64,000 nucleotides of DNA from Acinetobacter sp. ASP199. Lineage in GTDB: Bacteria; Pseudomonadota; Gammaproteobacteria; Pseudomonadales; Moraxellaceae. This document shows positions 36,590-53,874 of this stretch, one piece after another; positions within the stretch are counted from its first letter, which is position 1, and each line of letters starts with the position of its first letter. Where the stretch lies: assembly GCF_022700675.1 (NCBI RefSeq), contig NZ_CP062182.1, forward strand, positions 1,178,001 to 1,242,000, read 5' to 3'. The notes beneath the pieces are model-generated. The model was not told where the DNA came from. It searched no databases and was given only the letters and a program-made list of their open reading frames with translations. The position numbers and the translations under genes were made by a program.

Positions 36590-37459
36590 TTAGCCATTAA
36601 TAATACTGCCACCATTTACATGGATTACTTGGCCTGAGATATAGCTGGCTTCCTCGCTGGCTAGAAATAAATAGGCTGGAGCAACTTCACTTGGTTGTCC
36701 CATGCGGCCCATCGGGGCCTGTTTACCAAAATCTTTTAAAGTTTCTTCATCAAAACTGCTTGGAATGAGAGGAGTCCAGATTGGACCAGGTGCAACACCA
36801 TTAACACGAATACCAGTCTTGTTTTTCAGTAAATTGCTGGAGAGACTGCGGGTAAAGGTTGTAATTGCACCTTTTGTGCTGGAGTAGTCAATTAATTCAT
36901 CATGACCATGATAGCTGGTAATACTGGTGGTATTAATGATGCTGTCGCCTGCCTGCATATGTGGCAGAACGGCCTGAGTTAAATGAAACATACTCAGAAT
37001 ATTGGTATTAAAAGTTTTATTGAGCTGCTCAGGAGAGATGTCGGTAATACTTTTTTGTGGATATTGTACCGCTGCATTATTGATCAGAATATTAATGGTT
37101 TGGAATTCCTGAATAGTCTGTTTCACCAGATCCTGAATTTCATCAAGCTGTTGCAGATCACATTTAATGATCAAACAGCGTCGTCCTTCTGCTTCAACCA
37201 GTTTCTTGGTAACTCTTGCATCCTGATCTTCGTCCAGATAACAAAGCGCGATATCGGCACCTTCACGAGCAAACAGGACCGATACCGAACGGCCAATCCC
37301 ACTATCACCTCCGGTAATAAGGGCAACTTTACCTTTTAATTTTTCGCTACTTTTATAGTTGGGTTTAATGATCTCTGGCTCGGGATTCATTTCGGTTTGA
37401 ACACCGGGTTGATGTTCTTGCGTTTCGGTCGAATTCGGGGTTTCAGGATAATTATTCAT
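36590..37459 (-). CDS. Short-chain dehydrogenase/reductase (YghA-like)
   Basis: This 289-residue classical SDR has the NAD(P)-binding LITGGDSGIGRSV (about 48-60), ILINNAA (about 125-131), and the catalytic Ser..Tyr-x-x-x-Lys in ...YSSTKGAI (about 192-199), ending VIHVNGGSIING. The 40-residue hydrophilic N-terminal extension and the GD-SGIG form match the YghA/YtfG-type general-stress SDRs common in desiccation-tolerant bacteria. The substrate is unknown. It stands alone and is divergent from the adhesin. Confidence 0.88.
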   Translation of the reverse strand: MNNYPETPNSTETQEHQPGVQTEMNPEPEIIKPNYKSSEKLKGKVALITGGDSGIGRSVSVLFAREGADIALCYLDEDQDARVTKKLVEAEGRRCLIIKCDLQQLDEIQDLVKQTIQEFQTINILINNAAVQYPQKSITDISPEQLNKTFNTNILSMFHLTQAVLPHMQAGDSIINTTSITSYHGHDELIDYSSTKGAITTFTRSLSSNLLKNKTGIRVNGVAPGPIWTPLIPSSFDEETLKDFGKQAPMGRMGQPSEVAPAYLFLASEEASYISGQVIHVNGGSIING

Positions 37460-37942: not shown

Positions 37943-40900
37943 ATGCAGGTTCAAGTCATTTCAAAGTCAAATGGTGCTAATAATTTAATAAAAGAGTATT
38001 CACAGGAAATAGGATTAAATGAAAGCTCTGTTGTTTTGGTAGATGTAAAGGTAGAAGATGTTGAAAAGATTGAACATCTAAATAATCAAATAGAAATTAC
38101 TTTAAAAAATGGCGAAAAAATAGTAATAAATAACTTTAATATAGAAGAAAGTTCATTAGTTTTTAGAAATGAACAATCTGAAATGTCCTTATTTGATTTT
38201 GAGACAATTTCATATAATCCAATAAATGATATTGAGCTTTTACTGAATGAAGGTGTAAAGGGTTTATTCACAGAGCTTTGGCCTTGGGTAGCGGGAGCTG
38301 CAGTAATCGGTGGTTTAGCAATAGCTGCTGATGGTTCAAGTGGTTCAAATAGCAACTACGGAAATAATAATTTATCTGAACAAGAAATTGCAAAAGCGTT
38401 ACTAGAACAAGCAATTGAAAATGCTAAAGATGCATTGGCGACTCTTACGGGTGAAGAAAAGTCAGCAGTAGAAAAAGCGCTGGCAAAAGCTGAAGCTGAA
38501 TTGGTCAAAGAAGGTGCTACAGCAGATGACTTTACAAAAGCAGCAACAGATTTAAATGAAGTGGTATCTGGTGCACAAATTTTGGAAAATCAAGAAGATG
38601 CAGCGGATAAACTTGCGGATGCTAAAGCAGATCTTTCTGATGCCATTGAAAATGCGAAAGATAGCCTGAACGAACTGACTGGTGAAGAAAAGTCACAAGT
38701 TGAAGCAGAGATTGCTGAGGCAGAAGCAGTATTGGCAAAAGAAGACGCTAATGTTGATGATTACAAGGCCGCTGAGGATGCACTAGAAAAAGTTGTTGAA
38801 GATGCTAAAGCATCAGAAGCCACAGAAGGTTCAGCGGATCAACTTGCGGATGCTAAAGCAGATCTTTCTAATGCTATTGAAAATGCGAAAGATAGCCTGA
38901 ACGAACTGACTGGTAAAGAAAAGTCACAAGTTGAAGCGGCGATTGACGAGGCAGAAGCAGTATGGGCAAAAGAAGACGCTAATATTGCTGATTACAAGGC
39001 TGCTGAGGATGCATTAGAAAAAGTTGTTGCGAAAGCAGAAGCTGCACAATCTCTCAAGGATGCAGCCGATTTGGCTGCAGAAGTAGCAGAAGCGGAAGCA
39101 CAGGCTTATGCTGATGCAAAACAATCACTTGTTGATTCAATTGCAGCTGCCAAAGAAGCTGTCAAAGTACTGACAGGATCAGAGAAGTCATTAGTAGAAG
39201 AAGCACTGGCAACAGCTGAAGCTGAATTGGTCAAAGAAGGTGCTACCGCAGATGACTTTAATGCAGCAGCATCAGACTTAGATGCAGTGGTAGAAGTTGC
39301 ACAAATCTTGGAAAATAAAGAAGGTGCAGCGGATAAGCTTGCGGATGCTAAAGCAGATCTTTCTGATGCCATTGAAAATGCGAAAGATAGCCTGAACGAA
39401 CTGACTGGTGAAGAAAAGTCACAAGTTGAAGCAGAGATTGCTGAGGCAGAAGCAGTATTGGCAAAAGAAGACGCTAATGTTGATGATTACAAGGCCGCTG
39501 AGGATGCACTAGAAGAAGTGGTTGAAGATGCTAAAGCATCAGAAGCCACAGAAGGTTCAGCGGATCAACTTGCGGATGCTAAAGCAGATCTTTCTGATGC
39601 TATTGAAAATGCGAAAGATAGCCTGAACGAACTGACTGGTAAAGAAAAGTCACAAGTTAAAGCGGCGATTGACGAGGCAGAAGCAGTATGGGCAAAAGAA
39701 GACGCTAATATTGCTGATTACAAGGCTGCTGAGGATGCATTAGAAAAAGTTGTTGCGAAAGCAGAAGCTGCACAATCTCTCAAGGATGCAGCCGATTTGG
39801 CTGCAGAAGTAGCAGAAGCGGAAGCACAGGCTTATGCTGATGCAAAACAATCACTTGTTGATTCAATTGCAGCTGCCAAAGAAGCTGTCAAAGTACTGAC
39901 AGGATCAGAGAAGTCATTAGTAGAAGAAGCACTGGCAACAGCTGAAGCTGAATTGGTCAAAGAAGGTGCTACCGCAGATGACTTTAATGCAGCAGCATCA
40001 GAATTAGATGCAGTGGTAGAAGTTGCACAAATCTTTGAAAATAAAGAAGGTGCAGCGGATAAACTTGCGGATGCTAAAGCAGACCTTTCTGATGCCATTG
40101 AAAATGCGAAAGAAAGCCTGAACGAACTGACTGGTGAAGAAAAGTCACAAGTTGAAGCAGAGATTGCTGAGGCAGAAGCAGTATTGGCAAAAGAAGACGC
40201 TAATGTTGATGATTACAAGGCCGCTGAGGATGCACTAGAAGAAGTGGTTGAAGATGCTAAAGCATCAGAAGCCACAGAAGGTTCAGCGGATCAACTTGCG
40301 GATGCTAAAGCAGATCTTTCTGATGCTATTGAAAATGCGAAAGATAGCCTGAACGAACTGACTGGTAAAGAAAAGTCACAAGTTGAAGCAGAGATTGCTG
40401 AGGCAGAAGCAGTATGGGCAAAAGAAGACGCTAATATTGCTGATTACAAGGCTGCTGAGGATGCATTAGAAAAAGTTGTTGCGAAAGCAGAAGCTGCACA
40501 ATCTCTCAAGGATGCAGCCGATTTGGCTGCAGAAGTAGCAGAAGCGGAAGCACAGGCTTATGCTGATGCAAAACAATCACTTGTTGATTCAATTGCAGCT
40601 GCCAAAGAAGCTGTCAAAGTACTGACAGGATCAGAGAAGTCATTAGTAGAAGAAGCACTGGCAACAGCTGAAGCTGAATTGGTCAAAGAAGGTGCTACCG
40701 CAGATGACTTTAATGCAGCAGCATCAGAATTAGATGCAGTGGTAGAAGTTGCACAAATCTTTGAAAATAAAGAAGGTGCAGCGGATAAACTTGCGGATGC
40801 TAAAGCAGACCTTTCTGATGCCATTGAAAATGCGAAAGAAAGCCTGAACGAACTGACTGGTGAAGAAAAGTCACAAGTTGAAGCGGCGATTGCTGAGGCA

Positions 40901-43489
40901 GAAGCAGCATTGGCAAATGAAGACGCTAGTCTTGCTGATTACAAGGCTGCTGAGGATGCACTAGAAGAAGTTGTTGAAGATGCTAAAGCATCAGAAGCCA
41001 CAGAAAGTTCAGATGAAAAGACAGTGGAAGCAGCAAAAGACCGTTTGAAAGCTTTAATTATAGAAAAAACCCCTATTTTAGATCGTTTAGATGGTGTCGA
41101 GCTTGCTGAAGCAAAAGTATTGCTTGCAGATGGTAAAACATTAGTTTTTGAGTCTAATGATTTAACTGAAATTACAGATTTTATTACGACTTTAACTAAT
41201 GGGTTTGACGCAGCTGTTGCACAAGAAGCTTTAGAGGATGCTGCTGAAATACAATTAGATGCAGTTATCTTTAAGGCTGAAAATCTATCAGCAGATAATC
41301 CTAAAGATCAAGAACTACTTCAAGATGCTATTCAAAAAGCTAAGGCTTTAAAATTAAAATCTTATACCTCGGAAGCTCAGTTTGTTGAAGAAGCACAAGA
41401 GCTGCAAAAAGTTTTGGATACGATTTCAATTTCATCTCAAACAAAAATAGGCGATGTTAATACATATGCCACACTTGAGGTAAATCCAAAAACAACAGAT
41501 TTTTATGATAAGGATGGAAATGTCGTTTCAAAACTTACAGCTAGTGGAGTTAGTCTAGTTGATTTAGGTTTGGGTGGGGTCTTAGATGCATCAGTTGTAG
41601 AAAAATATAACGGAATAAGTTTTACAGTTAAGCCAAACCAAACATTATCATTTACATATGAAGCAAAATTAAACGGTTTGGCTTCTGGTACCAAGCTAGA
41701 TATTGTTTTATTAAAACAAGAATTGGTGAATGGTCAGTATGTTTGGACTTCTGAAACAATTGGTTCTGGGTCAATAGGGTCAGCATTATTTATTCCAATT
41801 AGTAGTATCAATGTTAATGTCATGGATTTGACAGAAGGAAGCTATAAACTTATTGCTAGCCCATCATCTGAAGCAAGTTTAAGCTTGCTTGGTGGTTTGA
41901 CCTCCACAATGGCGGATTTGGTTGTAAAAGATTATTCTGATTATGATGATTTAGGATTGAAAGGTTATAGCCAACAAGGGAATATTTTTGATCAAGCTAA
42001 TGTAATTACAACATCGGAATTGAGCTCAATCACATTAAATGATTCGAAAACGTACCAATTGTATTACGACAAATTTGTTGTAGATACGCAATATGGTGTG
42101 CTAACTGTCTACAAAGACACAGGTGATTATATATTTGAACCATCAACAAAAGATATTTCATTTATTGGTAAGAAAGAAACAATTAAGTTTGTTTATTCTG
42201 AAAATGGACAAGAAAAATATATCAATTTAAATGTTGGTATTGAGAGTCCTGATGTTGAAACAGATTTTGATGAACCGAAGCCAATTAAAAACTTTGAAGC
42301 TATTGATGATCAAGCCATTGTTAATCTTAACTTAAGTCAAACTAATGAAGTTTTAGATAAAAGTGGATTTAAAGGAGAGGTTACGAAAAAAGATGGTACT
42401 TCAATTGATCTAGAAAAAATTTCTAATCCAAAAACAGAGAGTTTTAAATTTTATTCTATCACAGATAAAGTAACGTTTAGTTTTAGTTTGACTGGTAAAG
42501 GTAAAGTCTTTAGTTTTTATGCGAAAGAAAACTCTACAGTTAACCAAGATTGGGTACTTAAAAAAGATGGTATTGAGATTCAACGTGGAACATTAGGCCA
42601 GAACGATCAGTTGATTTTGGATGGATTATACGAAGGTGGATATACGCTTGAATTAACTAATACTGGTTCTTCGGCTGGACTTGAAAATATTGCTATAATA
42701 TCTACTGATTTATTTAACTATGAAACAGAAGAAAATCAAAATAATCAGATTTTAGGAAATATCCTTAAAAATGATAATTTTGATAATGTGTTATACAAAT
42801 TATTTATAAATGCTGAAGATAGTCTAGTTCAAATTAAAGGTGTATATGGTCAAGATACTGGTCAAACATTTAAGGGTACATATGGAACTTTAACGATCTG
42901 GATGAATGGACAATATCAATATGATTTAAATCCTGATGTAACGGCCCAGGAGTTTGGTGAAGTAGAGCATTTTGAATATCAAATAAAAGCAGCGAATGGT
43001 GATGTAACTACAGCAAGCTTAGATATAAATTTATCGTCATACCAACTCATTAATAATGAAGATAGTGAAACGCTTTCATTGTTAAAAGGTAGCACTGGAA
43101 ATGACATACTAATGGGTAATGAATATTCAAATACTATTGTTGGTAATGGTGGTCATGATACACTGATTTATAAAGTTCTTGAGGGTGCAGAAAACTCAGG
43201 TACAGGTGGTAATGGTCACGATACATGGACGGATTTCGGCGTAAAAGTTGATAATCTCGATGGTATTAATATTTCAGAATTACTTGTTGGATTTGAGAAA
43301 GGTGTTAGTGATATTAAACAGTTTATCTCTGTGAACTATGATGAGTCTAAGGGCGAAGCAGTACTTTCAATCGATCGTGATGGTACATCTGGTGGGCTTT
43401 ATCAGAGTACGAAGTTACTGACTTTAACAAATCAAACTAAACCAGTAACATTGGATGAATTGTTAGAAAATAACCAAATCATTTTCTAA
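37943..43489 (+). CDS. Large type I-secreted repeat adhesin (BapA-prefix type)
   Basis: This protein of about 1848 residues is probably a surface adhesin. Residues 1-110 match the BapA prefix-like domain (GEKIVINNF; SLVF) and are followed by a Gly/Ala-rich hydrophobic stretch (LWPWVAGAAVIGGLAIAAD) as in retained T1SS adhesins. Residues about 145-1025 are eleven helical modules of 73-88 residues (for example DAIENAKDSLNELTG.EKSQVE and DYKAAEDALE.VVE), like FIVAR domains, rather than the Ig-like repeats of Bap. Two degenerate modules follow. The last 650 residues resemble the Bap C-terminus, with an RTX-like GSTGNDILMGN and a type I secretion signal region. ATG 37943 fits the ribosome binding site. 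The T1SS operon at 49008-53874 is the likely exporter. There is no clear LapG-type AAG cleavage motif. Confidence 0.87.
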   Translation: MQVQVISKSNGANNLIKEYSQEIGLNESSVVLVDVKVEDVEKIEHLNNQIEITLKNGEKIVINNFNIEESSLVFRNEQSEMSLFDFETISYNPINDIELLLNEGVKGLFTELWPWVAGAAVIGGLAIAADGSSGSNSNYGNNNLSEQEIAKALLEQAIENAKDALATLTGEEKSAVEKALAKAEAELVKEGATADDFTKAATDLNEVVSGAQILENQEDAADKLADAKADLSDAIENAKDSLNELTGEEKSQVEAEIAEAEAVLAKEDANVDDYKAAEDALEKVVEDAKASEATEGSADQLADAKADLSNAIENAKDSLNELTGKEKSQVEAAIDEAEAVWAKEDANIADYKAAEDALEKVVAKAEAAQSLKDAADLAAEVAEAEAQAYADAKQSLVDSIAAAKEAVKVLTGSEKSLVEEALATAEAELVKEGATADDFNAAASDLDAVVEVAQILENKEGAADKLADAKADLSDAIENAKDSLNELTGEEKSQVEAEIAEAEAVLAKEDANVDDYKAAEDALEEVVEDAKASEATEGSADQLADAKADLSDAIENAKDSLNELTGKEKSQVKAAIDEAEAVWAKEDANIADYKAAEDALEKVVAKAEAAQSLKDAADLAAEVAEAEAQAYADAKQSLVDSIAAAKEAVKVLTGSEKSLVEEALATAEAELVKEGATADDFNAAASELDAVVEVAQIFENKEGAADKLADAKADLSDAIENAKESLNELTGEEKSQVEAEIAEAEAVLAKEDANVDDYKAAEDALEEVVEDAKASEATEGSADQLADAKADLSDAIENAKDSLNELTGKEKSQVEAEIAEAEAVWAKEDANIADYKAAEDALEKVVAKAEAAQSLKDAADLAAEVAEAEAQAYADAKQSLVDSIAAAKEAVKVLTGSEKSLVEEALATAEAELVKEGATADDFNAAASELDAVVEVAQIFENKEGAADKLADAKADLSDAIENAKESLNELTGEEKSQVEAAIAEAEAALANEDASLADYKAAEDALEEVVEDAKASEATESSDEKTVEAAKDRLKALIIEKTPILDRLDGVELAEAKVLLADGKTLVFESNDLTEITDFITTLTNGFDAAVAQEALEDAAEIQLDAVIFKAENLSADNPKDQELLQDAIQKAKALKLKSYTSEAQFVEEAQELQKVLDTISISSQTKIGDVNTYATLEVNPKTTDFYDKDGNVVSKLTASGVSLVDLGLGGVLDASVVEKYNGISFTVKPNQTLSFTYEAKLNGLASGTKLDIVLLKQELVNGQYVWTSETIGSGSIGSALFIPISSINVNVMDLTEGSYKLIASPSSEASLSLLGGLTSTMADLVVKDYSDYDDLGLKGYSQQGNIFDQANVITTSELSSITLNDSKTYQLYYDKFVVDTQYGVLTVYKDTGDYIFEPSTKDISFIGKKETIKFVYSENGQEKYINLNVGIESPDVETDFDEPKPIKNFEAIDDQAIVNLNLSQTNEVLDKSGFKGEVTKKDGTSIDLEKISNPKTESFKFYSITDKVTFSFSLTGKGKVFSFYAKENSTVNQDWVLKKDGIEIQRGTLGQNDQLILDGLYEGGYTLELTNTGSSAGLENIAIISTDLFNYETEENQNNQILGNILKNDNFDNVLYKLFINAEDSLVQIKGVYGQDTGQTFKGTYGTLTIWMNGQYQYDLNPDVTAQEFGEVEHFEYQIKAANGDVTTASLDINLSSYQLINNEDSETLSLLKGSTGNDILMGNEYSNTIVGNGGHDTLIYKVLEGAENSGTGGNGHDTWTDFGVKVDNLDGINISELLVGFEKGVSDIKQFISVNYDESKGEAVLSIDRDGTSGGLYQSTKLLTLTNQTKPVTLDELLENNQIIF
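38380..41010 (+). repeat. 726-bp tandem super-repeats in the adhesin gene
   Basis: The helical modules repeat in a three-module period of 726 bp (242 residues). Copies begin near 38383 (diverged first module), 39109, 39835 and 40561 (partial). The last three are nearly identical; the differences are mostly single codons, such as a Trp codon in the third module. This near-identity implies recent duplication or gene conversion, and the region is easy to mis-assemble from short reads. Confidence 0.9.
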
Positions 43490-43638: not shown

Positions 43639-45060
43639 ATGCAACCATTTGTTCTATATAACTCAGAGCAACGTAAAAAAGTAGAATTTGTTCCTCGTAA
43701 AGAAGGTCAGATTGATCTGTATGTTTGTGGTATGACGGTCTATGACTATTGTCATATTGGACATGCACGTACAGTGGTTGCATTCGACTATATTATCCGT
43801 TTCTTGCGTAGCCAGGGCTGGCAGGTGAAATACGTACGTAATATCACCGACATTGACGACAAAATTATTAAACGTGCCAATGAAAATGGTGAAAGCATTT
43901 CATCACTCACCAGCCGTTTTATTGATGCGATGAATGAAGACTTTGCCAAATTAGGCTGTCTTGCGCCGGATGCTGCACCAAAAGCCACTGACTATATTGA
44001 TCAAATGCAAAATATGATTGGTACCCTTGTGGATAACGGTACAGCATATCCAGCCAATAATGGCGACGTGTATTTTGAAGTTGAAAAGTTTGCGAAATAC
44101 GGTCGTTTATCTGGTCGTAAACTGGAAGACATGCAAGCGGGTGCATCAGACCGTGTAGATGTAGAAGTTGAGAAAAAACATCCATTTGACTTTGTACTGT
44201 GGAAACATGCTAAAGAAAATGAACCATCTTGGACATCTCCTTGGGGCAATGGTCGCCCAGGCTGGCATATTGAATGTTCAGCCATGTCGACTTGCTGCCT
44301 GGGTAATCATTTTGATATTCATGGCGGTGGTGCTGATTTAAGCTTCCCGCATCATGAAAATGAGATTGCACAATCTGAAGCAGCGACAGGTGAACAGTAT
44401 GTGAACTACTGGATGCATGCTGGCTTCATCAACGTCGATGGCGAAAAAATGTCGAAGTCTTTGGGCAACTTCTTCACCATTCGTGATGTGATTGAAAAAT
44501 TCCATCCTGAAGTGGTGCGTTACTTTATCGTGTCTTCACACTATCGCAGCCCAGTGAACTATTCTGATGTAGCATTAAAAGAAGCGAAAAATACGCTGAT
44601 GCGTTTCTATCATTCCTTTAAAGCTTATCAAGCGGTATATGGCGAGCTAGTTGTTGAAACTCTAGATCAAAGCTTTGTTGAACGTTTCAATACGGCAATG
44701 CGTGATGACTTCAATACCCCAGAAGCCATTGCAGTATTGTTTGAACTGAATAAAGAGCTCAACCGTGCGGTAAAAGACCAGAATCAGGAACAGGCTGCTG
44801 TTTATTATTCTACTTTGCGTCATCTCACCAATATTCTAGGTCTGGTGCAGCACAATGTTGATGAATTCTTGAAGTCTGATATAGGTCAGGAAGCTTTAGG
44901 CTTATCTCAAGCACAGATTGAAGACCTGATCCAGCAACGTAAAGATGCCAAGAAAGAGAAAAACTTTGCTCGTGCCGATGAAATCCGCCAGTCTTTATTA
45001 GACCAAGGCGTGGTTTTGGAAGATACCCGTCAAGGTACGGTATGGCGTCGTGCTGATTAA
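43639..45060 (+). CDS. cysS: Cysteinyl-tRNA synthetase
   Basis: CysS charges tRNA-Cys. The 473-residue class I synthetase shows the HIGH-type motif in [16 protein letters not shown] (about 36-51), the zinc-binding [23 protein letters not shown] and [14 protein letters not shown], and the [11 protein letters not shown] motif at about 271-281. The length is normal. It lies between the adhesin and tRNA-Gly, with which it has no known functional link. Confidence 0.95.
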
Positions 45061-49007: not shown

Positions 49008-50555
49008 ATGCTATTGCAAGCAAAAAAAATTAATGAACTTCGGGGTAATTTACAGGGGAAAAAAGGGCTATTTATCGTCCTATTATTGCCTTTGCAAATG
49101 TCTCAAGTTTATGCGGCGGATACAGAAAGCGGATATTTTCAGGGATTTAAACAAGGAGTCAGTAAACTGTTTTCCCCTGAACCTGTGAAATCTTCACATA
49201 CGGTTGATCTGCGAGATCTGAGTAATTATCAGCTGGATACCTCACGTGTTCAGGAATTGCCCCCAGTAGGCAGCTTTCAGAGTGGGATTCGCACACAAAA
49301 TAATATGCCAGCCACGGGCATTCCCAGACGCATCAATCTGAAGGATGCTGTACTGACAGCAGTTCAGCGTCGTCCTGAAATTTCACAGAGTATCTCTGCG
49401 TTGTCTTCACAGGTTGCCAATATTGATGTCGCGAAAGCACAATACTATCCGCAGATTTCGGGTGGATTGGGTACAGCCGATTTGACCAAAGGCGAACGCG
49501 GTCGTCAGGTGGTTTCCCTGAATGCGACTCAAATGCTGTATGATTTTGGCAAGGTGAAATCCAGTGTGACCACTGAAGAAGCCAAGCTTGCCCAAGAACA
49601 GGCACGGGTTTTAGTCAGTCTGGATCAGATTGCACTTGAAGTGGCAGATGCCATTGTCAATATCAAGCGCTATCAGGAAATTACCAAGATTGCCGAGCAA
49701 CAGAAACAAGGGATTGCACGAATAGCGGAAATTGCCAATTTACGTGCCAGAGCCGGGATTAGCAGTCAGGCCGATCCTATTCAAGCTCAATCTAATCTGG
49801 AAGCGGCAGAGAATAACCTGATTGTGCAACAAACCCAGTTACGTCAATATCAACAAAAATTGCGCACTTTATTAGGCTTTGATGTTTCCAATGTGGACTG
49901 GGAAATTCCGGATAGTCTGATTCAACAGGCCGGACTTTATCAGGAGCCTGAGTTTACCGGTATTCCGACCTTGATGTTGGCGCATGCCGGGGTGGAAGTC
50001 GCACGTTCGCAAAAGGAACAGGCCAAGCTTAATGCTTACCCTACCATTAATATCAAAGGGAGTATGAGTCAGGCCATTAATGGTCGCAATCCGAATAATA
50101 ATGAAGATGATGGCTTTTATAACTCTGTGATGATTGAAGCCACCAGTAATTTCTATCAAGGTGGGGCGACCAGATCACAGACCCGTGCAGCCAGTTTTGC
50201 TGAAGAAGCAGCACGTGCTCAGGTCAATACTGCCTATCTGGATGTAGTCGATCAGGTCCGTTTGATTCGCGAACAGATTGAAAATAAACAGCGACAAATG
50301 GACATTCTGGCACAGCGCCGTGCAACCACTGTGCGCACCAGAGAGCTGTATCAGGAACAATATAAACTCGGTACTCGAACCGTAGTCGATCTGCTTAATG
50401 CAGAGCAGGCAATTCACAGCGCAGCCCAAGAAATTGAAACCGCGCGCTACGATATTTATACCGCTATTGTTCAGTACATTCAGGTCACCGGTCGCACACG
50501 CGATCTTTATGACCTTAACCGTATTTCTATTCAGGGGTTTGAAGTACAGCCATGA
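49008..50555 (+). CDS. TolC-family outer membrane efflux protein of the T1SS
   Basis: A 515-residue TolC/LapE-type outer membrane channel. A hydrophobic N-terminal segment (FIVLLLPLQMSQVYAADT) acts as a signal peptide. The body shows the tandem OEP repeats: LKDAVLTAVQRRPEISQSISALS, LYDFGKVKSS, and in the second half FYQGGATRSQTRAASF, YKLGTRTVVDLLNAEQAI. It is the first gene of a three-gene operon with the ABC exporter and HlyD-type adaptor (ATGA overlaps), which together form a complete type I secretion system. The probable substrate is the adhesin at 37943. Confidence 0.92.
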   Translation: MLLQAKKINELRGNLQGKKGLFIVLLLPLQMSQVYAADTESGYFQGFKQGVSKLFSPEPVKSSHTVDLRDLSNYQLDTSRVQELPPVGSFQSGIRTQNNMPATGIPRRINLKDAVLTAVQRRPEISQSISALSSQVANIDVAKAQYYPQISGGLGTADLTKGERGRQVVSLNATQMLYDFGKVKSSVTTEEAKLAQEQARVLVSLDQIALEVADAIVNIKRYQEITKIAEQQKQGIARIAEIANLRARAGISSQADPIQAQSNLEAAENNLIVQQTQLRQYQQKLRTLLGFDVSNVDWEIPDSLIQQAGLYQEPEFTGIPTLMLAHAGVEVARSQKEQAKLNAYPTINIKGSMSQAINGRNPNNNEDDGFYNSVMIEATSNFYQGGATRSQTRAASFAEEAARAQVNTAYLDVVDQVRLIREQIENKQRQMDILAQRRATTVRTRELYQEQYKLGTRTVVDLLNAEQAIHSAAQEIETARYDIYTAIVQYIQVTGRTRDLYDLNRISIQGFEVQP

Positions 50556-52690
50556 GTAATACAATAAATTATCAGCCGTGGCTTCAGGCGATACTTAATA
50601 TCGCCAAGCATTATCGCATCGAGCCATCTGAGGAAAGAATCCGACTACAACTTGACTGGAACCAGCATCATGATATTGATGAACTGCTCAAAGTTGTCAC
50701 GCGTCAGATCGGTTTAAATGTACGTAAAAACAAATTTGATGCCAGTCTGCTCAGTCCATGGAAACTGCCAATATTGGTAGAATTTGAAAATGGCGAAGTG
50801 GGTGTGATTGAGCGCATTGATAGTGAAGGCAATGCCAGCGTGCAGCTCAGTGGGGATCAGGGATTGTCTCAGGTCTTTGACCTGGAACATCTGAAGCAGG
50901 GCGCTAAAAGCCTTTATATCCTGCGTCCTGAGTCTTCAGTACCCGATGCCCGGGTCGATGAATATATCAAGCCTTTCGAAAAGAACTGGTTCTGGTCAAT
51001 TGTCCTGAATGACTGGAAACGTTATATCGATGTGATGTTTGCTTCTTTAATCGCGAACATCCTCGCACTGGCTACCATTGTCTTTTCCATGAACGTGTAT
51101 GACCGGGTCATTCCTTCACAGTCTATCCCGACCTTATGGGTACTGGCAGGCGGTGTATTGATTGCGGCAATCTTCGAATTTACCTTACGCGTCTCCCGGA
51201 TCTATCTGTCTGATATTATCGGCAAGCGCGCTGATTTACGTATTTCTGACCGGGTCTTTGGTCATGCCTTACGCATTAAAAATAAAGAACGTTCAAAATC
51301 TACCGGTACTTTTATTTCACAGATTCGTGAACTGGAAGGTGTCCGTGAACTGGTGACTTCTACTACAGTTACTGCGATTGCTGACCTGCCATTTTTCTTC
51401 CTGTTCCTTGGAATCTTCTGGCTGATTGGCGGAAACCTGTTCTGGGTGATGCTGCTGGTAGTTCCTCTGATGATCTTGCCTGGCATTCTGGCGCAGAAAA
51501 AACTGGCTGAGCTGGCACAAATGGGCATGCGTGAATCTTCGATCCGGAACGCTTTGTTAGTCGAAGCAGTACAAGGAATTGAAGATATCAAGCTACTGCG
51601 TGCTGAATCGCGTTTCCAGAACCAGTGGAACCATATGAATGAGGTTTCTGCCGATGTCAGCATGCAGCAACGTAAAATCGTTGGTTTGATGACCGCCTGG
51701 ACTCAAAAAATTCAAGGTCTGACATTTGCTATTGTTGTTTTAGTAGGCTGTTTTGCTGTTATGGAAGGTGAAATGACCACAGGTGCACTGGTTGCCTGTT
51801 CAATTCTGTCTTCACGTATGCTGGCACCGATTTCCCAAATTACCGGTGTCCTCGGTCGTTTACAGCAGGCGAAAGTCGCGAAAAATGGTTTAGACGAACT
51901 GATGAAAAAGCCGGTGGATCAGCCGGACTATGCTCATCTGATTCATCGTCCATTACTGGAAGGTCAGTACGAGCTCAGTGGTGCGGTATTTAAATATGGT
52001 GAAGATGATCCAAAACCTACCTTGGTCATTCCCAAACTGGAAATCAAACCTGGTGAGAAGATTGCGATCTTGGGTCGTAACGGTGCAGGTAAATCAACCT
52101 TGTTGCAATTGTTATCCGGTATGCAAACGCCGTTACAGGGCAAGGTCAAACTTGATGGAATTGACCTGGAACTGATTGATCCGGCAGATGTGCGTCGTGA
52201 TATCGGCTTACTGAATCAAAATTCACAACTATTTTACGGCAGCATTCGCGAAAACCTGACGCTGGGTGCACCACTGGCAACTGACCAGCAAATCCTTGAA
52301 GCTTTGCAACTCACAGGTGCATTAGGCTTCGTTCAGGAAAAGAAAGAAGGTCTGGACCATATCATTCTGGAAGGTGGTATGGGCTTTTCCGGTGGTCAGC
52401 GTCAAGCCTTGTTACTTGCTCGTTTACTGATTCGCCAACCACAAATCTTATTGCTGGATGAGCCAACTGCTGCCATTGATGATGTTTCTGAGAAACAGCT
52501 GATTGATAATTTAAAAACTTATCTGATTGGCCGAACTATGGTGGTAGCGACACATCGTCGCGCGGTACTTGAACTGGTAGACCGCATCATTGTTGTGAAT
52601 GACGGCAAGATTGTGATGGATGGTCCTCGCGACCAGATCCTGAATCAATCACAAGGTGGAGCGAAGCGTGTTACGGGAGCAAGCGCATGA
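50552..52690 (+). CDS. Type I secretion ABC exporter (LapB-like)
   Basis: A 712-residue ABC exporter. The N-terminal 130 residues form a C39-peptidase-like domain without a catalytic Cys, as in LapB/HlyB. Membrane segments lie at about 165-420. The nucleotide-binding domain has Walker A GRNGAGKST (about 508-516), the signature FSGGQRQALLLARLL (about 612-626) and Walker B ILLLDEPTAAID. The start overlaps the TolC gene (ATGA) and its end overlaps the HlyD gene, so the three are translated together. The HlyB-like domain is known to bind substrates rather than cleave them. Confidence 0.93.
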   Translation: MSNTINYQPWLQAILNIAKHYRIEPSEERIRLQLDWNQHHDIDELLKVVTRQIGLNVRKNKFDASLLSPWKLPILVEFENGEVGVIERIDSEGNASVQLSGDQGLSQVFDLEHLKQGAKSLYILRPESSVPDARVDEYIKPFEKNWFWSIVLNDWKRYIDVMFASLIANILALATIVFSMNVYDRVIPSQSIPTLWVLAGGVLIAAIFEFTLRVSRIYLSDIIGKRADLRISDRVFGHALRIKNKERSKSTGTFISQIRELEGVRELVTSTTVTAIADLPFFFLFLGIFWLIGGNLFWVMLLVVPLMILPGILAQKKLAELAQMGMRESSIRNALLVEAVQGIEDIKLLRAESRFQNQWNHMNEVSADVSMQQRKIVGLMTAWTQKIQGLTFAIVVLVGCFAVMEGEMTTGALVACSILSSRMLAPISQITGVLGRLQQAKVAKNGLDELMKKPVDQPDYAHLIHRPLLEGQYELSGAVFKYGEDDPKPTLVIPKLEIKPGEKIAILGRNGAGKSTLLQLLSGMQTPLQGKVKLDGIDLELIDPADVRRDIGLLNQNSQLFYGSIRENLTLGAPLATDQQILEALQLTGALGFVQEKKEGLDHIILEGGMGFSGGQRQALLLARLLIRQPQILLLDEPTAAIDDVSEKQLIDNLKTYLIGRTMVVATHRRAVLELVDRIIVVNDGKIVMDGPRDQILNQSQGGAKRVTGASA

Positions 52691-53874
52691 GTGCACAACA
52701 AGATATCAAGCGTTCAACTAAAGTCAGCTTTCAGGAACCACCTTTGCCAAAATCAAGTGTGATCATCTGGATCATCGGTATAGGCTTACTGATTCTGCTG
52801 ACGTGGGCATGGCTGTTTAAGCTGGAAGAAGTTTCGACAGGTACCGGTAAAGTTATTCCGTCTTCCAAGGAGCAGGTTATTCAGTCTCTGGAAGGAGGTA
52901 TTCTCACCAAACTGAATGTCAAAGAAGGTGAAATTGTCGAGCAGGGTCAGGTATTGGCTCAGCTTGATCCCACCCGTTTTGAGTCCAATGTAGGTGAATC
53001 GGCTTCTCTGTTAATTTCTTCGCGTGCAACCGCAGCACGCTTACGTGCTGAAGTCAGCGGTGCGCCGTTGTCTTTCCCACCTGAAGTGCTCAAAGAGCCA
53101 AAACTGGTGACAGAAGAAACTGCATTGTATAAATCGCGCCGTGCCAATCTGGAAGAATCTCTGGCAGGTTTAAAACAGGCATTGGTGCTGGTGCAGCAAG
53201 AACTGGCAATGACCGAACCATTGGTTGCAAAAGGTGCAGCAAGTGAAGTGGAAGTTCTACGTTTAAAGCGTGAAGCCAATGATTTGCAAAATCAGATGAA
53301 TGATGTGCGGAACCAGTATTTTGTGAAGGCACGTGAGGAACTGGCTAAAGCCAATACCGATGTGGAAACCCAGCAACAGGTGGTACGTGGTAAATCTGAT
53401 ACGCTGAACCGGACTATTTTCAAATCGCCAGTACGTGGCGTAGTGAAAGAAATTGATGTCATGACTTTAGGTGGTGTCATTCCACAAAATGGCAAGCTGA
53501 TGACTATTGTACCACTTGATGAAAAACTGCTAGTTGAAGCCCGTATTTCACCACGTGATATTGCTTTTATCCGTCCAGATCAGGAAGCGCTGGTCAAAAT
53601 CACCGCTTATGATTATTCGATTTATGGTGGTTTAAAAGGTAAAGTCACCGTGATTTCTCCGGATACCTTGCGTGATGAAGTCAAGCAGGACCAGTTTTAC
53701 TACCGCGTTTATATCCGTACCGAAAATGACAAGCTGACCAATAAAGCCGGACAGGAATTTAATATCACCCCGGGTATGGTGGCGACCGTGGATATCCGTA
53801 CGGGTGAAAAAACGGTACTGGACTACTTGGTCAAACCGTTTAACAAAGCCAAAGAAGCATTACGAGAACGCTAA
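52687..53874 (+). CDS. HlyD-family membrane fusion protein of the T1SS (LapC-like)
   Basis: A 395-residue periplasmic adaptor. One membrane segment lies at about residues 24-42 (VIIWIIGIGLLILLTWAW). It is followed by a lipoyl-like half (GGILTKLNVKEGEIVEQGQVLAQLD), a long coiled-coil hairpin at about 100-250, the second lipoyl half (IFKSPVRGVVKEI) and a C-terminal beta domain ending in the usual ITPGMVATVDIRTGEKTVLDYLV. It bridges the ABC exporter and the TolC-type channel. It is the last gene of the operon, ended by a terminator. Confidence 0.93.
   Translation: MSAQQDIKRSTKVSFQEPPLPKSSVIIWIIGIGLLILLTWAWLFKLEEVSTGTGKVIPSSKEQVIQSLEGGILTKLNVKEGEIVEQGQVLAQLDPTRFESNVGESASLLISSRATAARLRAEVSGAPLSFPPEVLKEPKLVTEETALYKSRRANLEESLAGLKQALVLVQQELAMTEPLVAKGAASEVEVLRLKREANDLQNQMNDVRNQYFVKAREELAKANTDVETQQQVVRGKSDTLNRTIFKSPVRGVVKEIDVMTLGGVIPQNGKLMTIVPLDEKLLVEARISPRDIAFIRPDQEALVKITAYDYSIYGGLKGKVTVISPDTLRDEVKQDQFYYRVYIRTENDKLTNKAGQEFNITPGMVATVDIRTGEKTVLDYLVKPFNKAKEALRER

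What the first reader, a model, noticed from the sequence alone, without database searches (positions are those of the whole stretch)
37943..43489. Type I-secreted adhesin built from helical FIVAR-like modules instead of Ig-like repeats
The protein has the BapA-prefix N-terminus and a Bap-like C-terminus, but its extension is made of eleven Ala/Glu/Lys-rich helical modules of 73-88 residues that look like three-helix FIVAR domains. Bap, BLP and LapA family proteins known to me use beta-sandwich repeats. A helical stalk would change stiffness and binding. Seen directly: module pattern and termini. Inference: surface adhesion role.
Basis: partly seen in the sequence, partly recalled or inferred. 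Interest (0 to 1): 0.7.

Follow-up and report, generated by a model that had tools for sequence, protein, structure and literature searches.

The report
Acinetobacter adhesin with helical FIVAR-like stalk
This gene encodes a very long bacterial surface protein, probably used for sticking, whose reach is built from bundles of helices resembling those of a giant staphylococcal adhesin instead of the usual beta-sandwich repeats, and close relatives carry quite different stalks at the same place in the chromosome.

Summary
Window 37943-43489 encodes an intact 1848-residue protein: BapA prefix, eleven Ala/Glu/Asp/Lys-rich modules (spacing 77/77/88, no proline in 880 residues), a weak 12th-13th module, a Bap/LapF-like C-terminal region and a type I secretion signal. 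A complete type I secretion system lies 5.5 kb downstream in the window. AlphaFold2 models modules 9-11 as three-helix bundles joined by shared long helices (19 of 23 ten-residue blocks at 90 or more). The first Foldseek match is staphylococcal EbhA (E 0.009), though the whole string does not superpose. The window's modules miss Pfam's FIVAR cut-off, but two relatives with the same prefix and homologous modules pass it (G012 41.0, G151 31.3 bits; cut-off 29.2), and the relatives' profile finds Embp's repeat best in the PDB (E 9e-5). FIVAR-like modules were found in 5 of 173 Acinetobacter genomes. Helical stalks as such are not unique (GA_3 over cut-off in 12 of 147). More interesting: 15 proteins with this N-terminus carry FIVAR-like, GA-like, Ig-like, collagen-like or Ser-Asp stalks; stalk type does not follow the N-terminal tree, and three types sit at one conserved locus. 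New variant of a known kind. Adhesion itself is inferred.

The parts
37943..43489 (+). adhesin gene, 1848 aa, ATG start after GAGGGG
   Evidence: upstream sequence printed
37943..38287 (+). BapA_N prefix domain (residues 1-115)
   Evidence: PF22783 6.4e-18; NF033677
38288..38377 (+). Gly/Ala-rich hydrophobic linker (residues 116-145)
   Evidence: read directly
38378..38608 (+). module 1 (A type)
38609..38839 (+). module 2 (B type)
38840..39103 (+). module 3 (C type, 88 aa with longer last helix)
39104..39334 (+). module 4 (A)
39335..39565 (+). module 5 (B)
39566..39829 (+). module 6 (C)
39830..40060 (+). module 7 (A)
40061..40291 (+). module 8 (B)
40292..40555 (+). module 9 (C)
   Evidence: modelled
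40556..40786 (+). module 10 (A)
   Evidence: modelled
40787..41017 (+). module 11 (B)
   Evidence: modelled
41018..41452 (+). probable degenerate modules 12 and 13 (residues 1026-1170), weak
   Evidence: 11.6 bits vs maximum 6.3 in 200 shuffles; helical but low-confidence in the model
41621..43033 (+). Bap/LapF-type C-terminal adhesin region (residues 1227-1697)
   Evidence: NF045619 2.6e-46, below its cut-off; Big_9 0.0021, below cut-off
43088..43165 (+). single RTX-like nonapeptide stretch (residues 1716-1741)
   Evidence: PF00353 22.7 bits, cut-off 23
43220..43483 (+). type I secretion C-terminal target domain (residues 1760-1847)
   Evidence: TIGR03661 4.3e-09, over cut-off
49008..50555 (+). 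TolC-family outer membrane protein of the type I secretion system
   Evidence: TIGR01844 228.3 bits, cut-off 225.15
50552..52690 (+). LssB-type type I secretion ABC transporter
   Evidence: TIGR03375 864.6 bits, over cut-off
52687..53874 (+). HlyD-family adaptor of the type I secretion system
   Evidence: TIGR01843 330.3 bits, over cut-off
36590..37459 (-). upstream flanking gene (SDR oxidoreductase), synteny marker
   Evidence: NF005214; beside the adhesin in G134, G074, G174
43639..45060 (+). downstream flanking gene, synteny marker; the name cysS is from recall
   Evidence: beside the adhesin in G134, G074, G002, G174 at 88-99% identity

Best explanation
It is a type I-secreted, cell-surface fibrillar adhesin of the BapA-prefix/Bap kind whose stalk is a string of eleven (plus perhaps two degenerate) three-helix bundles of the FIVAR/EbhA kind. 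Shown by computation: domain order, helical modules with shared long helices, a complete type I system nearby, modules homologous to those of FIVAR-bearing relatives. Inferred: the C-terminal signal leads export through TolC-LssB-HlyD; the C-terminal region folds outside and contacts a surface or partner; the BapA prefix end holds the protein at the cell; the helical string spans the gap and may bind by itself, with many weak contacts at once, as Embp does on fibronectin. No LapG-type protease was found, so LapG-style release is unlikely. The stalk is an exchangeable part: relatives with the same N-terminus have FIVAR-like, GA-like, Ig-like, collagen-like or Ser-Asp stalks.
For: BapA_N, NF045619 (under cut-off), TIGR03661; type I system in the window; no PF06035 match in the own genome. 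AF2 of residues 784-1195: helices 2-20, 25-43, 49-110, 113-131, 137-185, 190-208; of the first 23 ten-residue blocks 19 have pLDDT 90 or more. Foldseek rank 1 is EbhA 2dgj, probability 0.96, E 8.9e-3; 2ozn (a further entry of 2jnk's sequence; FIVAR-dockerin by recall) has rmsd 1.5 over 68 columns, 31% identity, though E 2.0. Relatives with BapA_N pass FIVAR (cut-off 29.2): G012 41.0 bits, four stretches; G151 31.3 bits. The window-only profile A1 finds G012 (3.1e-11) and G068 (2.7e-11) modules and G151 (145.9 bits). Profile A7, without window rows, has 6gv8 (Embp F-repeat) as best PDB hit, 8.7e-5, and scores the window 517 bits and 0 of 40 shuffles. Proline 0 of 880; hydrophobic moment at 100 degrees 0.92 against 0.65 +- 0.03 in 20 shuffles. 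Stalk exchange.
Against: Window modules alone: FIVAR listed for 2 of 5 modules scanned, E 0.1 and 0.22, partial, no better than chance families. FIVAR as a single match over cut-off: 0 of 147 Acinetobacter genomes and 0 of 369 class genomes. With window rows in the profile, Hsp70 lids outrank Embp in the PDB (6e-4 against 0.018; A1 alone also gives Hsp70 first). In the fold search no match reaches E 0.001; EbhA does not superpose over its whole length (rmsd 22.2 over 301 columns, TM 0.13/0.22), while Hsp70 lids fit a single bundle as well (rmsd 1.7-3.5, probability 1.00). Part of the similarity may thus be generic to Ala-rich three-helix bundles. The C-terminal model is useless (pLDDT 36). No ligand, expression or localisation data.
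Confidence: 0.8

Rival explanations
1. The helical array is a passive spacer only. All binding is done by the C-terminal Bap-type region; module number just sets the reach.
For: Stalk type varies among relatives with the same N-terminus, as expected of a spacer; the super-repeats are near-identical (98.5-99.0%), as expected of length change by recombination.
Against: The last 140 residues also diverge strongly (36-65% to the window in the four others at the shared locus); Embp repeats of this kind bind fibronectin themselves (PMC7587433, abstract and passages).
Confidence: 0.4
2. The modules are a helical family that converged on the three-helix bundle and are not FIVAR homologues.
For: Window modules miss the FIVAR cut-off; A1 and A2 rank Hsp70 lids above Embp; Hsp70 lids superpose on the model as well as FIVAR does.
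Against: G012 and G151 pass the FIVAR cut-off, best stretches covering 1-70 and 1-69 of 71 positions; the window-free profile A7 ranks Embp first and finds the window at 517 bits; EbhA is the first fold match by E-value.
Confidence: 0.25
3. It is a secreted rather than cell-held protein (matrix or soluble factor).
For: No experimental proof of anchoring; the retention role of the BapA prefix is recalled, not tested.
Against: BLP1 and BLP2, which share an N-terminal motif with BAP, affect biofilm and adherence when knocked out (PMC4647330 abstract; that the motif is the BapA prefix is recalled); no LapG-type protease for release.
Confidence: 0.1

Closest known systems
BapA/Bap/LapF-type large adhesins (Acinetobacter BAP, BLP1, BLP2)
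   Same: BapA prefix domain, repetitive middle, Bap-like C-terminus, type I secretion signal; BAP stalks are already known to vary between Ig-like and Ser-Asp repeats (PMC4647330: abstract, passages, sections 8 and 14)
   Different: the repeats are three-helix FIVAR-like modules, a stalk type not named in the parts of that paper I read; the paper says BAP, BLP1 and BLP2 are missing in A. lwoffii and A. johnsonii, while relatives that share this N-terminus include A. schindleri and A. pseudolwoffii
Embp/Ebh of staphylococci (FIVAR and FG repeats)
   Same: tandem three-helix bundles with shared long helices; sequence profile of the relatives' modules and first fold match
   Different: Embp has 50 repeats and GA parts (PMC7587433, passages); here type I secreted, 11-13 modules, no GA module found in the window protein; the whole string does not superpose on EbhA
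GA_3 (PF22775) helical modules of Acinetobacter BapA_N proteins
   Same: helical modules in BapA_N proteins; over cut-off in 12 of 147 genomes
   Different: own genome has no GA_3 match; spacing and motif differ
FIVAR domain PF07554
   Same: length, predicted three-helix fold, homology through G012 and G151 modules
   Different: window modules are below the curated cut-off

Membership tests
BapA-prefix / Bap-type adhesin | BapA_N prefix domain | tested here: met
   PF22783 65 bits, cut-off 27; NF033677 40.9, cut-off 35
BapA-prefix / Bap-type adhesin | BapA/Bap/LapF C-terminal region NF045619 at curated cut-off | tested here: inconclusive
   2.6e-46, profile positions 1-457 of 458, but 158.8 bits against cut-off 180
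BapA-prefix / Bap-type adhesin | type I secretion C-terminal signal | tested here: met
   TIGR03661 37.4 bits, cut-off 17.6
BapA-prefix / Bap-type adhesin | type I secretion system in the genome | tested here: met
   TIGR01844, TIGR03375, TIGR01843 all over cut-off in the window
BapA-prefix / Bap-type adhesin | surface location and role in biofilm or adherence | not testable with these tools
   needs experiment
FIVAR domain (PF07554) | match over Pfam's gathering score by the window's protein | tested here: not met
   not listed for the whole protein at E up to 1; listed for 2 of 5 modules scanned, 13.7 and 12.6 bits, cut-off 29.2
FIVAR domain (PF07554) | homology to a protein that passes the score | tested here: met
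   G012 41.0 bits, G151 31.3 bits; window profile A1 finds their modules
FIVAR domain (PF07554) | three-helix bundle fold | tested here: met
   AF2 model, 2ozn rmsd 1.5 over 68 columns; a prediction, and Hsp70 lids fit as well
LapA-type adhesin with LapG release | LapG (Peptidase_C93) in the genome | tested here: not met
   0 matches in own genome; found in the control Caulobacter vibrioides
GA_3 modules (PF22775) | match over cut-off | tested here: not met
   own genome none; 12 of 147 genus genomes yes

The most novel reading that the evidence does not exclude
The locus between the SDR gene and cysS is a stalk-exchange site: the ends of a type I adhesin stay, while whole stalk cassettes of unrelated folds (FIVAR-like helix string, GA-like, Ig-like; collagen-like and Ser-Asp in relatives at other places) are swapped by recombination, and the FIVAR-like version is a Gram-negative counterpart of Embp that binds its target through the stalk itself, Velcro-like. 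Type I secretion would then have to export modules that can fold without calcium.
Probability: 0.25. Interest if true: 0.7.

Novelty: new variant of a known kind. Interest (0 to 1): 0.52.

Why it matters
Acinetobacter adhesins of this class are described with Ig-like or Ser-Asp stalks (PMC4647330). A FIVAR-like helix string on the same chassis would change stiffness, calcium dependence and possibly the ligand, and suggests that the stalk fold is exchangeable independently of the end that holds the protein to the cell. It makes two questions testable: whether stalks bind or only reach, and how type I systems export fast-folding helical bundles.

Tried and rejected
Direct FIVAR match of the window protein: rejected at Pfam's cut-off, kept as homology through relatives. 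GA module: not found in the window protein. LapA/LapG-type release: no LapG found. Plasmid relatives: none by tblastn for the window array at E 0.01 nor for G012 modules at E 1; the low-complexity filter may hide such sequences. Class-wide A7 hits outside the own genome were four single partial matches in 368 genomes, three in frames of 645-671 aa, perhaps Hsp70 lids (a guess, not checked). Structure of the C-terminal part: pLDDT 36, discarded. Promoter and terminator scan upstream: one promoter-like site, on the minus strand, fewer than in shuffles. A profile-profile comparison with a FIVAR seed was not possible: no seed or Gram-positive FIVAR loci were had. Rows dropped: 75 of 173 genomes match the N-terminal profile at 1e-12; only the 15 at 116 bits or more were classified, a cut chosen after seeing the gap to the next score of 96. 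Of these 15, G147, G041, G089, G001 and G068 stop at or near a contig edge, so their class rests on the part present; G068 shows a single module.

Full report
What is there. The ORF at 37943-43489 is open and encodes 1848 residues from an ATG preceded by GAGGGG. Residues 1-115 are a BapA prefix domain. Residues 146-1025 hold eleven modules with the motif LTGxEKS, spaced 77/77/88, in A-B-C order: the DNA super-repeat of 726 bp is present in three full copies 98.5-99.0% identical. No proline occurs in these 880 residues, net charge is -154, and the hydrophobic moment peaks at the helical angle (0.92 against 0.65 +- 0.03 in 20 shuffles), unlike residues 1190-1700. Residues 1026-1170 look like a degenerate 12th and 13th module; this is weak (11.6 bits against at most 6.3 in 200 shuffles, but neither stretch significant on its own with A7; moment not above shuffles). 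Then come a Bap/LapF-type region (158.8 bits, under its cut-off of 180), one RTX-like stretch just under cut-off, and a type I secretion target domain over cut-off.

Fold. AlphaFold2 on residues 784-1195, with only four window rows, gives mean pLDDT 75.6, pTM 0.40; of the first 23 ten-residue blocks (modules 9, 10 and most of 11) 19 have 90 or more, the rest of the model is low. The helices form three-helix modules in which the last helix of one runs on as the first of the next (49-110, 137-185). Foldseek against the PDB ranks S. aureus EbhA first (probability 0.96, E 8.9e-3); no match is under 0.001, and EbhA does not superpose as a whole (rmsd 22.2 over 301 columns, TM 0.13/0.22). Single bundles fit better: 2ozn rmsd 1.5 over 68 columns at 31% identity (E 2.0), but Hsp70 lids fit too (rmsd 1.7-3.5, probability 1.00). 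The fold class is therefore supported, the string geometry only as a model. The C-terminal model has pLDDT 36 and is not used.

Is it FIVAR? Not by the window's own letters: FIVAR is listed for 2 of 5 modules scanned, 13.7 and 12.6 bits, cut-off 29.2, and 0 of 147 Acinetobacter genomes hold a single match over cut-off, though 7 have one at E 0.01 or better, not the own one. But the window-only profile A1 finds modules in G012 (3.1e-11) and G068 (2.7e-11), 3 of 148 genomes with the own one, and in G151 (145.9 bits). Two of these relatives, themselves BapA_N, pass FIVAR: G012 with 41.0 bits and four stretches, G151 with 31.3 bits. Profile A7, made of G012, G068 and G151 modules without window rows, has Embp's F-repeat 6gv8 as best PDB hit (8.7e-5), aligned to chain 96-160, which lies inside the second three-helix bundle if chain residue 1 is residue 2569 of PMC7587433 (passages). 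A7 scores the window 517 bits, G134's two pieces 81.6 and 132.5 bits, and none of 40 shuffles. Against: with window rows in the profile (A1, A2) Hsp70 lids outrank Embp. I call the modules FIVAR-like and probably homologous.

How common. FIVAR-like modules by A7: 5 of 173 Acinetobacter genomes (own, G012, G068, G134, G151); three of these supplied A7's rows, and G068 shows only one module. With A2 it was 4 of 175. In the class, 368 other genomes gave four single partial hits and no array. FIVAR over cut-off as a single match: 0 of 369 class genomes. Helical stalks in general: GA_3 over cut-off in 12 of 147 Acinetobacter genomes, in one protein with BapA_N in the three I scanned with that result: G134's second gene, G041 and G164.

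Secretion and surroundings. A TolC (228.3 bits, cut-off 225.15), an LssB-type ABC transporter and an HlyD adaptor, each over its cut-off, lie at 49008-53874, separated from the adhesin by cysS and lipopolysaccharide-related genes (cysS, kdsD, kdsC named from recall; lptC). The ABC gene is the only one in the genome over the TIGR03375 cut-off. In G172, G001 and G089 the adhesin with a related N-terminus stands right beside the HlyD gene of the related system. The own genome has a second short BapA_N protein (372-residue open frame, L029) and no LapG match.

Stalk exchange. Searching the genus with the N-terminal domain (A3) found 75 of 173 genomes at 1e-12; 15 reach 116 bits or more. Their stalks: FIVAR-like in G000, G134, G012, G068, G151, in G151 followed by Ig-like domains. 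GA_3 in G164 (164.7 bits); GA_3-like in G002, where one search gives two matches over cut-off (31.4 and 27.5 bits) although the whole-protein scan did not list the family; both continue with Ig-like domains. Ig-like in G174, G074 and G089 (Big_13, Big_12, Big_5). Ser-Asp in G172 and, with Ig-like parts, G001 (86% and 61% of the 550 residues examined). Collagen-like in G059 (247.6 bits), and weakly, as short Gly-X-X stretches between other repeats, in G147 (30.3) and G041 (27.9; cut-off 27.2). Named relatives are A. schindleri CIP 107287, A. pseudolwoffii ANC 5044, Acinetobacter sp. ANC 4169, sp. SFB and sp. B51(2017). On a tree of 118 N-terminal residues the stalk classes need 9 changes, shuffled mean 9.3, as low in 120 of 200 shuffles; one clade of FIVAR-like stalks is rejected (p-AU 4.7e-10). 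The tree is small: of 12 inner branches 3 are well supported and 6 are open; the classes used in it were set, which did not change them. Five members share the chromosomal place (SDR gene to cysS): G000, G134, G074, G174 on both sides, G002 on the cysS side. The four others' cysS proteins are 88-99% identical to the window's, N-termini 63-71%, last 140 residues 36-65%, and the five stalks are of three kinds. A housekeeping enzyme is expected to change more slowly; cassette replacement is my inference.

How it likely works. Inferred from the families: the C-terminal signal is exported first through the type I system, the C-terminal region folds outside and meets the target, and the BapA prefix end keeps the protein on the cell (retention recalled, not tested). 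The stalk would span roughly 40 nm, taking 70 A per two bundles from Embp (PMC7587433, passages). Embp binds surface-bound fibronectin through such repeats, many weak contacts at once (PMC9302970, abstract and passages), so the stalk may bind by itself; nothing here shows it.

Literature. PMC4647330: abstract, passages, sections 8 and 14: Acinetobacter BAPs are alpha (Ig-like) or beta (Ser-Asp); FIVAR occurs twice, for Embp and in the list of abbreviations. PMC8286594: passages only, no FIVAR. Searches for FIVAR with Acinetobacter, FIVAR with type I secretion and adhesin, GA-like domain with adhesin, collagen-like BapA adhesins, and three-helix bundle with type I secretion listed no title on a FIVAR-stalked type I adhesin in that open library; the second paper and the single papers were seen only in listings.

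Verdict. Observation confirmed, interpretation supported with the qualifications given. New variant of a known kind: a Bap-type type I adhesin with a FIVAR-like helical stalk, in a family whose stalks appear to be exchanged. Interest 0.52.

Noticed in passing
G134:C1:2973476-2980341 (L022) and G012:C1:906794-919055 (L023): The FIVAR-stalked relatives are split over several open frames in these two genomes. Decay, on-off switching by slippage in repeats, or assembly error cannot be told apart here.
   Followed up: partly
L024 (G059), L026 (G147), L111 (G041): Adhesins with a related N-terminus carry collagen-like Gly-X-X stretches: a 519-residue run in G059; in G147 and G041 short runs alternate with about 30-residue repeats that differ between the two.
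   Followed up: partly
L027:1411-9375 (G002, A. pseudolwoffii ANC 5044): Repeats hold EF-hand-like DANEDGIISQSEL loops inside GA_3-like modules (EF-hand matches below cut-off), suggesting a calcium-binding helical stalk.
   Followed up: no
L029:1980-3095 (own genome, C1:1295979-1297094): A short (372-residue open frame) second BapA_N protein with a Pro/Glu-rich middle; Pfam listed no stalk or secretion domain at E up to 0.1.
   Followed up: no
window 38378-41017: The array has G+C 0.436 against 0.376 for the whole gene, and its 726-bp units are 98.5-99.0% identical, so copy number may vary between strains.
   Followed up: no
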